Assembly: GCF_017163705.1 (NCBI RefSeq)
Contig: NZ_JAFIWB010000036.1
Location: forward strand, 1-39,699
DNA: 39,699 bases
Direction: 5' to 3'
Source of the DNA: Xanthomonas bonasiae
Lineage (GTDB): Bacteria; Pseudomonadota; Gammaproteobacteria; Xanthomonadales; Xanthomonadaceae
Shown here: positions 4,375 to 39,573 of the stretch, piece after piece
Numbering within the stretch: the first letter of the stretch is position 1
Layout of the letters: each line of letters begins with the position of its first letter
Program-made: the position numbers and the translations under genes
Notes under the pieces: model-generated
Databases searched by the model: none
What the model was told of the DNA's origin: nothing
What the model saw: only the letters and a program-made list of their open reading frames with translations

Positions 4375-4514
4375 CCCGATTCCCGATTCCCGATTCCCGA
4401 TTCCCGAGTCCCGATTCCCGAGTCCCGAGTCCCGAGTCCCGAGTCCCGAGTCCCGAGTCCCGATTCCCGAGTCCCGAGTCCCGAGTCCCGAGTCCCGAGT
4501 CCCGAGTCCCGAGT
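4375..4514. repeat. Tandem array of 20 heptanucleotide units (CCCGATT/CCCGAGT)
   Basis: Exactly 20 uninterrupted 7-bp units, each CCCGATT or CCCGAGT. In order the sixth base reads T T T T G T G G G G G G T G G G G G G G, so units 1-4, 6 and 13 are CCCGATT and the rest CCCGAGT. The only variation is this T/G position, which is the pattern expected from slippage or unequal exchange plus one ancestral substitution. Because 7 is not a multiple of 3 the array stays open in several frames on both strands, producing spurious ORFs. It lies between the DUF2272 gene and the DUF3301 gene, 48 bases before the latter's ATG, so length changes could alter the spacing of upstream signals. Confidence 0.95.
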
Positions 4515-4562
4515 CCCCAACCAAGCATTGCCGCTCCACCCCGCGTCTCGCTACAGTGACGC

Positions 4563-6480: not shown

Positions 6481-7227
6481 TCAATGCACGTCCTTCCAGT
6501 ATTCCTTCTTCAGCAGATAGGCCAGGAAGGTCAGCAGCGCCAGGAACAGCACCACCCACACGCCCAGGCTCTGCCGCTTCAGCGCGGCCGGTTCGCCGGC
6601 GTATTCGAGGAAGTTGCTGATGTCGCGGACCGTCTGGTCGAACTGCGCCGGCGTCTCCCTGCCCGGCGAGGCCAGTTGCAGCCGCTCCACCGGCTTGTCC
6701 ACGCCGGGCTGCTCGGCCTTGCCGTAGATCGGCTGCTGCAGGCCCTGCAGCTCCCACAGCGGATTGGGCATCGAGGCGTTGGCGAACAGCTTGTTGTTCC
6801 AGCCCAACGGGCGCGACTGGTCCAGATAGAACGACTTCAGGTAGGTATAGACCCAGTCGGTGCCGCGCACGCGCGCGATCAGGCTCAGGTCCGGCGGCGC
6901 CTTGCCGAACCACTTGGTCGCCGCATCGTGCGGCATCGCCGCCTCGATGTGCTCGCCGACCTTGGCGCCGGTGAAGTTGAGGTTGGCCATCACCTCGTCC
7001 TCGCTCAGGCCCAGGTCCTCGGCCATGCGCGAGTAGCGCAGGTATTTCAGCGAATGGCAGCCGGAACAGTAGTTCATGAACAGCTTGGCGCCGCGCTGCA
7101 GCGAGGCACGGTCGCCGAGATCGTTGCCGGCCTGCTGGGTGGCGCCGCCCTCGGCGGCCAGCGCCGAGGCGGACAACAGCAGCGCGGAGGCGAAGCAGGC
7201 CAGAACGGACATCAGGCGCTTGCTCAT
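6481..7227 (-). CDS. petC: Ubiquinol-cytochrome c reductase, cytochrome c1
   Basis: The membrane-anchored c-type cytochrome of complex III, passing electrons from the Rieske protein to soluble or bound cytochrome c. The 248-residue protein has a signal peptide (residues 1-24), the covalent heme site CSGCH near residue 54, the axial-methionine region NASMPNPLWELQG, and a C-terminal transmembrane helix (GVWVVLFLALLTFLAYLL) followed by a short lysine-rich tail. It lies last in petA-petB-petC. A strong GGAGG seven bases before its ATG lies inside the 50-codon ORF at 7224-7376, whose stop overlaps this start (ATGA). Confidence 0.96.
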   Translation of the reverse strand: MSKRLMSVLACFASALLLSASALAAEGGATQQAGNDLGDRASLQRGAKLFMNYCSGCHSLKYLRYSRMAEDLGLSEDEVMANLNFTGAKVGEHIEAAMPHDAATKWFGKAPPDLSLIARVRGTDWVYTYLKSFYLDQSRPLGWNNKLFANASMPNPLWELQGLQQPIYGKAEQPGVDKPVERLQLASPGRETPAQFDQTVRDISNFLEYAGEPAALKRQSLGVWVVLFLALLTFLAYLLKKEYWKDVH

Positions 7228-7376
7228 AGGGATCCCTCCGCCATCGCACCGAACAGGGAGCCGAGCGCCTGCCGGCCCCAGAACACGATCTGCCCCAACG
7301 GCAGCAGGTAGCTCATGGCGGACAACAACGCGACGCTCGCGGAGCAGGCCAGGACGGCAATCACGGGCTTAGTCAT
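7224..7376 (-). CDS. Chimeric 50-residue ORF between petB and petC
   Basis: A 50-codon ORF whose ATG lies eight bases inside the petB end and whose TGA overlaps the petC ATG. Residues 1-20 (MTKPVIAVLACSASVALLSA) resemble the petC signal peptide: the first 60 bases match the petC start at 44 of 60 positions in an ungapped hand alignment. Residues 22-45 (SYLLPLGQIVFWGRQALGSLFGAM) resemble petB around YVLPWGQMSFWG: 55 of 72 bases match. It would encode one hydrophobic segment and an amphipathic tail. Its own ribosome-binding site is weak, so it would depend on coupling to petB. It may be a duplication remnant or a real small bc1-associated membrane protein. I do not recognise it as a known family. 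Confidence 0.6.
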   Translation of the reverse strand: MTKPVIAVLACSASVALLSAMSYLLPLGQIVFWGRQALGSLFGAMAEGSL

Positions 7377-8631
7377 GGGTGGTCACCCGCTCCGGCACCG
7401 GCTTGGTCCGGTCCAACGTGGTCCAGACCGGCATGGTCAGGAAGAATCCGAAGTACAGCACGGTCAGCACGCGCCCGATGATGGTCTCGCTGGCATCGGT
7501 GCCGGGACCGGAACCGATCACCCCGAGCCAGACGAAGCACACCGCCAGCACGCCCAGCATCACCCTGGAGATCCAGCCGCGGTAGCGGATCGACTTGACC
7601 TTGGCGCGGTCCAGCCACGGCACCAGGAACAGGATCGCGATCGCCGAGAACATCACCAGCACGCCGCCCAGCTTGTTCGGCACCACCCGCAACATCGCGT
7701 AGTACGGCGTGTAGTACCACACCGGCTTGATGTGCTCGGGCGTGACCAGGCGGTTGGCCTCGGTGAAGTTGTCGTGCTCCAGGAACAGGCCGCCGAACGC
7801 GGGCACGAAGAAGATGATGAAGGCGCCGATCAGCAGCAGGAAGCCGACCCCGACCAGGTCCTTGACCGTGTAGTACGGGTGGAACGGAATGCCGTCGGCC
7901 GGCTTGTTCGGATCCCAGCGGTTGCCCTTCGGCCCCTTCTTGATCTCCACGCCGTCGGGGTTGTTGGAACCGACCTCGTGCAGCGCGCCCAGGTGCAGCA
8001 CCACCAGCAACAGCAGTACCAGCGGCAGCGCGATCACGTGCAGCGCGAAGAAGCGGTTGAGGGTGGCGTCGGACGGCAGGTAGTCGCCCATGATCCACTC
8101 GGTCAGGCCGTTGCCGATCACCGGGATCGCGCCGAACAGCGAGATGATCACCTTGGCGCCCCAGAACGACATCTGCCCCCACGGCAGCACGTAGCCCATG
8201 AAGGCCTCGGCCATCAGCACCAGGTAGATCAGCATGCCGAGGATCCACACCAGCTCGCGCGGCTTCTTGTAGCTGCCGTAGAGCAGCCCGCGGAACATGT
8301 GCAGGTACACCACGATGAAGAACAGCGAGGCGCCGGTGGAGTGCATGTAGCGGATCAGCCAGCCCCACTCCACGTCGCGCATGATGTACTCGACCGAGTT
8401 GAACGCCTCGGCCGCGCTGGTCTTGTAGTGCATCGTCAGGAAGATGCCGGTGACGATCTGGTTGACCAGCACCACCATCGCCAGCGAACCGAAGTAGTAC
8501 CAGAGGTTGAAGTTCTTCGGCGCGTAGTACTCGCTGACGTGCTTGCGGTAGAACGGCATCAGCCCCGGCGCGCGCTCGTTGACCCAGTCGAACACGTTGC
8601 CCGCGGTGCGGGTAAGGAGATTGTCGGCCAT
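7369..8631 (-). CDS. petB: Ubiquinol-cytochrome c reductase, cytochrome b
   Basis: The diheme, membrane-embedded core of complex III, holding the quinol-oxidising (Qo) and quinone-reducing (Qi) sites. The 420-residue protein has eight helices. Heme ligands are the histidines in RYMHST and YVVYLHMFRG-type helix B (14 apart, seen as MHST...YLHMF) and in FFALHVIA...VVLHLGALH of helix D, which are 15 apart rather than 14. The Qo cd-segment is GYVLPWGQMSFWGA, and the Qo loop motif reads PVWY in place of PEWY. It starts 3 bases after the petA stop and overlaps the small ORF downstream by eight bases. Confidence 0.97.
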   Translation of the reverse strand: MADNLLTRTAGNVFDWVNERAPGLMPFYRKHVSEYYAPKNFNLWYYFGSLAMVVLVNQIVTGIFLTMHYKTSAAEAFNSVEYIMRDVEWGWLIRYMHSTGASLFFIVVYLHMFRGLLYGSYKKPRELVWILGMLIYLVLMAEAFMGYVLPWGQMSFWGAKVIISLFGAIPVIGNGLTEWIMGDYLPSDATLNRFFALHVIALPLVLLLLVVLHLGALHEVGSNNPDGVEIKKGPKGNRWDPNKPADGIPFHPYYTVKDLVGVGFLLLIGAFIIFFVPAFGGLFLEHDNFTEANRLVTPEHIKPVWYYTPYYAMLRVVPNKLGGVLVMFSAIAILFLVPWLDRAKVKSIRYRGWISRVMLGVLAVCFVWLGVIGSGPGTDASETIIGRVLTVLYFGFFLTMPVWTTLDRTKPVPERVTTHD

Positions 8632-8634
8632 GGC

Positions 8635-9258
8635 TTACGCTGCCCCCTTCGCGGACGAACTGGGATCGACGCCGATGATCAGCGTGTTGTCGTCCTGATA
8701 GTGATGCGGGGGCACCAGCAGGTTGATCGGCGCAGGCACGCCCTGGAACACGCGGCCGGCCATGTCGAAGCGCGACTTGTGGCAGGGGCAGAAATAGCCG
8801 CCCTTCCATTCCGGATCGTAGGGTTCGGGGCGGATCTCGGCGACCATCTCCGGCGAGCAGCCCAGGTGCGTGCACAGCCCGACCAGCACCGAGATGTCGG
8901 GCTTGATCGAACGGCCCTCGCCCTTGATGTAGGCCGGCTGCTGGTCGGTGACCTCGGACTTGGGGTCCTTGAGCCGCCCATCCAGCGTCGGCAACGCATC
9001 CAGGATCGCCTTGGAACGCTTGACGATCCAGATCGGCTGACCGCGCCACTCCAGGATCAGGCGCTGGCCTTCCTGCAACGCGCTGATGTCGGCGGTGACC
9101 GGCGCACCGGCCAGTTTGGCCTTGGCGCTGGGGTTCCAGGACTTGATGAAAGGAACCGCGACGAAACCCGCACCCACCGCGCCCACCACCGCCGTGGTGG
9201 CGGTGAGAAAGCGGCGGCGTCCTGCATTAACAGAATCGTTGACCCCATCGTTGGCCAT
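8635..9258 (-). CDS. petA: Ubiquinol-cytochrome c reductase, Rieske iron-sulfur subunit
   Basis: The Rieske 2Fe-2S protein that takes the first electron from ubiquinol. The 207-residue protein has a twin-arginine signal (GRRRFLTATTA, about residues 13-23) leading into an uncleaved transmembrane anchor (VVGAVGAGFVAVPFI). The cluster ligands are in CTHLGC and CPCHKSRFD, supplying two cysteines and two histidines, with a disulfide pair. A lysine follows CPCH where many homologues have glycine. First gene of the operon; GGAG six bases before the ATG supports the start. Confidence 0.96.
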   Translation of the reverse strand: MANDGVNDSVNAGRRRFLTATTAVVGAVGAGFVAVPFIKSWNPSAKAKLAGAPVTADISALQEGQRLILEWRGQPIWIVKRSKAILDALPTLDGRLKDPKSEVTDQQPAYIKGEGRSIKPDISVLVGLCTHLGCSPEMVAEIRPEPYDPEWKGGYFCPCHKSRFDMAGRVFQGVPAPINLLVPPHHYQDDNTLIIGVDPSSSAKGAA

Positions 9259-39412: not shown

Positions 39413-39573
39413 TCTGGTGCTGTGTCTGGTGGTGCTGTGCTGTTGCTGTGTTCCTGCTGCCGCTCTTGCTGTCGCCTTCGCCTTGGCTTTCGCTGTCGCT
39501 TTGCCCTTCGCTTTTGCTGCGGCTGTTGCTTCCGCCTTTGCCTTTCGCTGTTGCTGTTGCTTTCGCCTTTGAC
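39413..39573. repeat. Degenerate hexamer low-complexity tract
   Basis: A run of imperfect GCTNTTGCY/GCTTTCGCC-type hexamers upstream of spuC. On the minus strand it is purine- and AGC/AAAGC-rich and would read as a lysine/alanine/serine/glutamine repeat in every frame. Repeated AAAGCN and ACAGCN units account for it. It looks like an expanded and decayed short tandem repeat. The frame open across it from 39692 to 39387 is not a convincing gene. Confidence 0.75.

What the first reader, a model, noticed from the sequence alone, without database searches (positions are those of the whole stretch)
7224..7376. Chimeric mini-gene made of petC-like and petB-like pieces inside the bc1 operon
A 50-codon ORF fills the gap between petB and petC exactly, overlapping petB by 8 bases and petC by 4. 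Its first 20 codons match the petC start at 44 of 60 bases and codons 22-45 match the petB LPWGQMSFWG segment at 55 of 72 bases (hand, ungapped counts). A partial duplication that stays open and coupled to both neighbours is unexpected for decayed DNA. It could be a small membrane subunit carrying a copy of a Qo-site helix (with W changed to L), or a leader that couples petC translation.
Basis: partly seen in the sequence, partly recalled or inferred. Interest (0 to 1): 0.8.

Follow-up and report, generated by a model that had tools for sequence, protein, structure and literature searches.

The report
Newborn chimeric gene in respiratory operon
A tiny 50-codon gene built from copied pieces of its two neighbours sits inside a bacterial respiratory-complex operon, has stayed intact in nine related species under selection on its protein, and may be a recently born small membrane protein.

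Summary
A 50-codon ORF (7224-7376, minus strand) fills the petB-petC gap, overlaps petB by 8 bases and petC by 4, and matches petC at 44/60 and petB at 55/72. It does not look like decayed DNA. Homologs occupy the same junction in 9 of 20 held genomes of its genus, always 50 codons with the same overlaps; no other sampled genome had a match at E 1e-13 or better. Selection is purifying: omega 0.22-0.49 in six tree/model combinations, omega 1 rejected in each. Two relatives in the carrier clade lack it cleanly. The insert is explained by copying: petC codons 1-19, petB codons 144-169, and, less surely, about 13 bases of the petB 3' end. Genus genomes without it start petC at the ATG that starts the mini-gene. 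Predicted product: an uncleaved one-helix membrane microprotein with a copy of the helix-C end and cd1 helix of the cytochrome b Qo site. Best guess: a clade-specific, dispensable accessory or assembly modulator of cytochrome bc1. That role is inferred; translation is not shown.

The parts
7224..7376 (-). Chimeric mini-gene, 50 codons plus TGA stop
   Evidence: homologs in 9 of 20 genus genomes, this one included
7320..7376 (-). petC-derived part: codons 1-19 (signal-peptide start of cytochrome c1, cleavage region not copied)
   Evidence: 41 of 57 nt against petC codons 1-19, next best place 26; 0 of 2000 shuffles
7242..7319 (-). petB-derived part: codons 20-45, copy of petB codons 144-169 (end of helix C, cd1 helix)
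   Evidence: 59 of 78 nt, next best place 43; PDB profile match
7228..7240 (-). Tail: probable diverged copy of the petB 3' end before the start codon, read in another frame; holds the Shine-Dalgarno-like site for petC (GGAGGG 7234-7239)
   Evidence: 12 of 13 nt in G009, 9 in G006 and G014, 7 in G007, 6 in the other five including this genome; SD energies
7369..7376 (-). 8-nt overlap petB stop / mini-gene start (ATGACTAA); the petC start in the 11 genus genomes without the mini-gene
7224..7227 (-). 4-nt overlap mini-gene stop / petC start (ATGA)
7369..8631 (-). petB, cytochrome b (420 aa), upstream neighbour and donor
   Evidence: PF00033 E 3.4e-69
8125..8202 (-). Donor segment in petB (codons 144-169)
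7377..7389 (-). Probable donor of the tail: petB 3' end
6481..7227 (-). petC, cytochrome c1 (248 aa), downstream neighbour; its first 57 nt (7171-7227) are the other copy of the signal-peptide start
   Evidence: PF02167 E 1.7e-26
8635..9258 (-). petA, Rieske protein, gene before petB (identity by sequence and place, recalled; no family search run)

Best explanation
A young protein-coding gene, born in one clade of the genus by a duplication inside the bc1 operon. Shown: two clear copied pieces and a probable third, exact and conserved coupling to both neighbours, and selection on the amino-acid sequence. Most economical birth route (inferred): tandem duplication of about 880 bp from petB codon 144 to petC codon 19, then a deletion inside the second petB copy, leaving 149 bp. 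How it likely works (inferred): ribosomes ending petB restart at ATGACTAA and make a 50-residue peptide; the petC signal core, without its cleavage region, acts as an uncleaved anchor (N inside, C outside), so the copied cd1 segment faces the periplasm, the side it occupies in cytochrome b; ribosomes then restart at ATGA for petC. Made next to PetB and PetC, the peptide most likely packs on the bc1 complex as a small dispensable accessory or assembly modulator. My odds: functional protein-coding gene 0.85; bc1-associated protein 0.5-0.6.
For: 9 of 9 copies keep 50 codons, ATG, TGA, both overlaps and a 149-bp insert, while two nearby intergenic gaps of the same 9 genomes vary (169-174 and 68-79 bp). 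Omega of codons 4-49 is 0.22-0.49 over three trees and two codon-frequency models, 2dlnL 11.9-45.2, and 0.24-0.34 in 9 of 9 leave-one-out runs. Of the other five frames four hold stops (17, 2, 8, 4) and the one open frame has omega 0.96. A neutral simulation keeps all nine tips open in 55 of 2000 runs. No sign of ongoing gene conversion: mini-genes are not closer to their own petC or petB than to those of other species. 12 of 46 columns are invariant, several with synonymous changes (C11, P26, G28, L41, A44). Hydropathy fits one helix within residues 4-24 with one N-terminal positive charge.
Against: Constraint is far weaker than in PetB (omega 0.03) or mature PetC (0.04), and about that of the petC signal peptide (0.22). 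Two species in the carrier clade lack the gene, so it is probably dispensable. With position-independent codon frequencies omega rises to 0.41-0.49, and one antisense frame (8 stops, treated as missing) also gives 0.42 with 2dlnL 12.5, so part of the signal may be compositional. G017 has lost Q29 and W33, and six of nine copies have lost W27. The invariant count is what a uniform omega of 0.29 predicts (247 of 1000 runs reach it), and a neutral model with a slower clock reaches it too (396 of 1000). Site heterogeneity is marginal (2dlnL 7.4).
Confidence: 0.6

Rival explanations
1. Translational-coupling spacer. The insert persists because petC now takes its ribosome-binding site and restart from the end of this ORF, so the frame must stay open; the peptide itself is a harmless by-product whose only constraint is to stay a tolerable hydrophobic segment.
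For: Stop-start overlap kept in 9 of 9; the SD-like site for petC lies in the mini-gene tail and is about as strong as or stronger than the one before the mini-gene (-8.2 to -10.9 against -8.2 or -8.3 kcal/mol); the tail codons 46-49 show no constraint (omega 1.1, only 4 codons); the overall constraint resembles that of a signal peptide; coupling by termination-reinitiation at overlapping stop-start codons is documented (PMC6728339, title and start of abstract in a listing).
Against: Does not by itself predict amino-acid constraint in both copied parts (omega 0.24 and 0.31, 2dlnL 22.4 and 13.4), nor invariant P26, G28, F32, G34.
Confidence: 0.3
2. Neutral relic of a duplication, open by chance in GC-rich DNA.
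For: Clade-limited and absent from two species of the clade; some copies lose conserved residues.
Against: Omega below 1 in all six tree/model combinations; only 55 of 2000 neutral simulations stay open in all nine; no length change although the tree of the mini-gene is about 1.0 substitution per site long.
Confidence: 0.06
3. Structured RNA element (attenuator or regulator) rather than a protein.
For: None beyond its place in the operon.
Against: Folds no better than shuffled sequence (z +1.56); covariation term -0.19 with 3 of 43 pairs changed on both sides; no Rfam match in the window at gathering score.
Confidence: 0.02

Closest known systems
Small membrane subunits of respiratory oxidases (CydX of cytochrome bd, CcoQ of cbb3)
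   Same: Short hydrophobic protein that belongs to a respiratory complex (passages of PMC10903887); CydX tolerates many substitutions (abstract of PMC6005532), as this ORF seems to.
   Different: Those belong to oxidases; this one sits in the bc1 operon, was found in one clade only, and is a visible chimera of its neighbours. Complex membership is untested here.
Subunit IV (fbcQ) of Rhodobacter sphaeroides cytochrome bc1
   Same: A lineage-specific supernumerary protein with one resolved transmembrane helix on a bacterial bc1, the role guessed here (passages of PMC10041115).
   Different: Subunit IV is 124 aa, encoded outside the operon and without homology to supernumerary subunits of other species; no relation to this ORF is claimed.
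Cytochrome b, cd1/Qo-site region (PF00033)
   Same: Residues 20-45 are homologous to the end of helix C and the cd1 helix; by the PDB table offsets residues 20, 28 and 34 fall at yeast positions 129, 137 and 143 (Qo pocket and F129L, G137R, G143A from passages of PMC6467933).
   Different: 26 residues only; no histidine, no ef loop, no quinone site of its own.
Small membrane proteins possibly derived from signal sequences (idea in PMC10903887, passages seen)
   Same: The helix here is a copied cytochrome c1 signal-peptide start without its cleavage region.
   Different: There it is a suggestion; here both donors and the ancestral junction can be read.

Membership tests
Cytochrome b (PF00033) | Match above Pfam gathering score (27.2 bits) | tested here: not met
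   Window protein: 0 families. 4 of 9 copies match at E up to 1; of the three shown with scores, L008 (29.0) and L009 (30.1) pass and L007 (17.6) does not.
Cytochrome b (PF00033) | Multi-helix heme-binding core with histidine ligands | tested here: not met
   50 aa, no histidine in any of 9 copies.
Small membrane subunit of a respiratory complex (CydX/CcoQ-like kind) | Under about 60 aa, one hydrophobic helix | tested here: met
   50 aa; best 19-residue mean hydropathy in the first 32 residues 1.93-2.16 in 9 of 9. Hydropathy only; no topology predictor was run.
Small membrane subunit of a respiratory complex (CydX/CcoQ-like kind) | Encoded within the operon of the complex and kept by selection | tested here: met
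Small membrane subunit of a respiratory complex (CydX/CcoQ-like kind) | Physically part of the complex | not testable with these tools
R. sphaeroides bc1 subunit IV | 124 aa, gene outside the bc1 operon | tested here: not met
   50 aa, inside the operon; paper passages.
Translational-coupling leader | Stop overlaps downstream start, with a ribosome-binding site | tested here: met
Translational-coupling leader | Peptide sequence itself unconstrained | tested here: not met
   omega 0.22-0.49
Pseudogene | Disrupted frame or neutral change | tested here: not met

The most novel reading that the evidence does not exclude
A supernumerary subunit of cytochrome bc1 caught soon after birth: the operon made a fourth subunit out of itself, joining the membrane anchor of cytochrome c1 to a copy of the Qo-pocket wall of cytochrome b, which now binds its parents and tunes assembly or Qo-site turnover.
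Probability: 0.3. Interest if true: 0.82.

Novelty: new variant of a known kind. Interest (0 to 1): 0.6.

Why it matters
How small membrane proteins and extra respiratory subunits arise is an open question; PMC10041115 (passages) says it is unclear why bc1 complexes recruited supernumerary components. Here both donors, the ancestral junction, the clade of origin and probable clean losses are visible together, so gene birth can be followed almost step by step, and whether a copied active-site segment acts on its parent enzyme becomes a simple test.

Tried and rejected
RNA element: not supported. Gene conversion as the cause of conservation: own-genome identities are not raised. Wider occurrence: 395 family, 398 order and 369 class genomes searched with the profile (samples overlap and include genus members); matches at E 1e-13 or better came only from the 9 carriers (9, 4 and 1 of them were in the three samples with a hit). 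In one search, 375 of 395 genomes match at 1e-7, because PetB itself matches at residues 19-45; the match list was cut, so not every row was seen, and a strongly diverged mini-gene below PetB level could be missed. A plasmid search found 16 records with partial matches at cytochrome b, no carrier. NCBIfam: no family for the window protein. The invariant-column count as a test of specific residues: not decisive. Folding energies at the petC start: no clear difference between carriers (-18.6 to -27.7) and four genomes without the mini-gene (-22.7 to -27.9).

Loss or never gained: a tree with the nine carriers as one clade is rejected by the AU test for the operon+ssp genes (p 0.004), gyrB (0.0007), valS (0.0001), these combined (6e-40), rpoB (6e-21) and rpoB+operon (3e-14). 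But the gene trees disagree strongly: rpoB puts G006 outside the carrier clade, which alone would reject one clade there, and places G001 as first branch of the rest. Recombination between species is thus common, and spread of the insert by recombination is an alternative to loss, for G001 more than for G010. A two-step origin cannot be told from a single template-switch event.

Literature: ten searches. Among the rows listed I saw no paper on an extra gene between petB and petC, judging by titles and starts of abstracts; only the open-licence library was searched and long result lists were cut.

Full report
Observation. The minus strand reads petA, petB, a 50-codon ORF, petC (petB and petC confirmed by Pfam; petA by recall). 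The ORF (7224-7376) shares ATGACTAA with the end of petB and ATGA with the start of petC. Codon shuffles never reached the match of either part in this genome (0 of 2000 each).

Where else. The protein was searched in 60 related genomes and in the 20 held genomes of the genus, and as a nine-row profile in 395 family, 398 order and 369 class genomes (overlapping samples). Copies occur in 9 of 20 genus genomes (G000, G004, G006, G007, G009, G012, G014, G015, G017); no other genome gave a match at E 1e-13 or better. All nine are exactly 50 codons with ATG and TGA. The petB-petC distance is +141 in 9 of 9 carriers and -8 in 11 of 11 genus genomes without it, an insert of 149 bp. Protein identity to the window copy falls to 60%.

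Ancestral state. In the 11 genus genomes without the mini-gene, petC itself starts at the ATG that overlaps the end of petB by 8 bases. So the mini-gene start stands where the petC start stood. In carriers petC has a second start 149 bp on.

Anatomy of the chimera. Codons 1-19 match petC codons 1-19 at 27-46 of 57 nt in the nine. In the five genomes scanned for other places, the match is clear in G000, G007 and G014 (next best 24-26); in G006 the margin is only 27 against 25, and in G009 another place scores 30 against 29, so in these two the petC match is not above background. Codons 20-45 match petB codons 144-169 at 54-65 of 78 nt (next best place at most 43 in the same five). The last 13 bases before the petC ATG match the petB 3' end at 12/13 in G009, 9/13 in G006 and G014, 7/13 in G007 and 6/13 in the other five, the window included; the origin of the tail therefore rests mainly on G009. 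If accepted, the three pieces cover 148 of the 149 bases. A tandem duplication followed by a deletion, or one template-switch event, gives this product.

Age and losses. The operon+ssp tree places the carriers in one clade of 11 species (ultrafast bootstrap 100) with G006 first (71 for the rest) and G001 (70) and G010 (97), which lack the gene, nested inside (rooted on G035). gyrB (87) and valS (100) also give this 11-species clade (rooted on the other nine genus genomes, an assumption). rpoB gives a 10-species clade with G001 as first branch and puts G006 in the other group. AU tests reject the carriers as one clade in each of six data sets, though conflict between genes shows much recombination. 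Simplest reading: one gain and two clean losses, G010 firmer than G001; the direct repeat at both ends of the insert would make exact loss easy (inference).

Selection. With a codon model on the operon tree, omega is 0.29 for codons 4-49 (2dlnL 37.4), 0.24 for the petC part, 0.31 for the petB part and 1.1 for the 4-codon tail; yardsticks are petC signal peptide 0.22, mature PetC 0.043, PetB 0.031. With free branch lengths, three trees and two frequency models omega is 0.22-0.49, and omega 1 is rejected in all six (2dlnL 11.9-45.2). Leaving out any one genome gives 0.24-0.34; the six L/V-type copies alone 0.25, the three W-type copies 0.11. Controls in the other five frames: stops 17, 2, 0, 8, 4 and omega 0.79, 2.28, 0.96, 0.42, 2.73, with 2dlnL 1.3, 14.3, 0.03, 12.5, 20.4; the 0.42 frame is antisense with 8 stops (set to missing), a warning that composition can feign some of the signal. 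A two-class model improves the fit marginally (2dlnL 7.4). Neutral simulations stayed open in all nine tips in 55 of 2000. Two nearby spacers change length in the same nine genomes, the insert does not. Mini-genes are not closer to their own petC or petB than to those of other species, so conversion does not explain the constraint. RNA structure is not supported.

What the peptide looks like. Residues 4-24 hold one hydrophobic stretch (best 19-residue hydropathy 1.93-2.16), with one positive charge in the first four residues and net charge 0 (eight copies) or +1 (G007) from residue 34 on. The petC cleavage region is not copied, so the peptide should stay anchored (inference; no signal-peptide predictor was run). 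Residues 20-45 align to cytochrome b at yeast 129-154 (offsets from the table). PMC6467933 (passages) describes the Qo pocket as cd1 helix 138-149, the end of helix C 125-134 and the ef loop; the copy thus covers cd1 and part of the helix-C end. P26, G28, F32 and G34 are invariant in nine copies; W27 is kept in three, L or V in six; G017 has R at 29 and 33. C11 is invariant with two codons, while petC of G014 and G009 has G or V there (read).

Expression (inferred). An SD-like site precedes the mini-gene inside petB (-8.2 or -8.3 kcal/mol in carriers) and another precedes petC inside the mini-gene tail (-8.2 to -10.9). Overlapping stop-start pairs are reported to couple translation (PMC6728339, title and start of abstract in a listing).

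Verdict. A clade-specific small gene made from its neighbours, under purifying selection on its protein, probably dispensable, most likely a small bc1-linked membrane protein. Translation, topology and binding are not shown.

Noticed in passing
4375-4517: Tandem array of a 7-base unit (CCCGAGT), 20.4 copies at 96% match, in and beside overlapping open frames that are probably not genes.
   Followed up: no
39456-39570: Imperfect array of 12/18/24/25-base pyrimidine-rich units near the window end.
   Followed up: no
L181 (rpoB region of G006) and the gyrB loci L193-L212: rpoB of G006 groups with species that lack the mini-gene, and gyrB splits the carrier clade by a long branch: signs of recombination between species of the genus at housekeeping genes.
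   Followed up: partly
7344-7346 (codon 11 of the mini-gene): Cysteine 11 of the mini-protein is invariant in nine copies although neighbouring residues change and petC itself varies there; lipidation, disulfide or metal roles untested.
   Followed up: no
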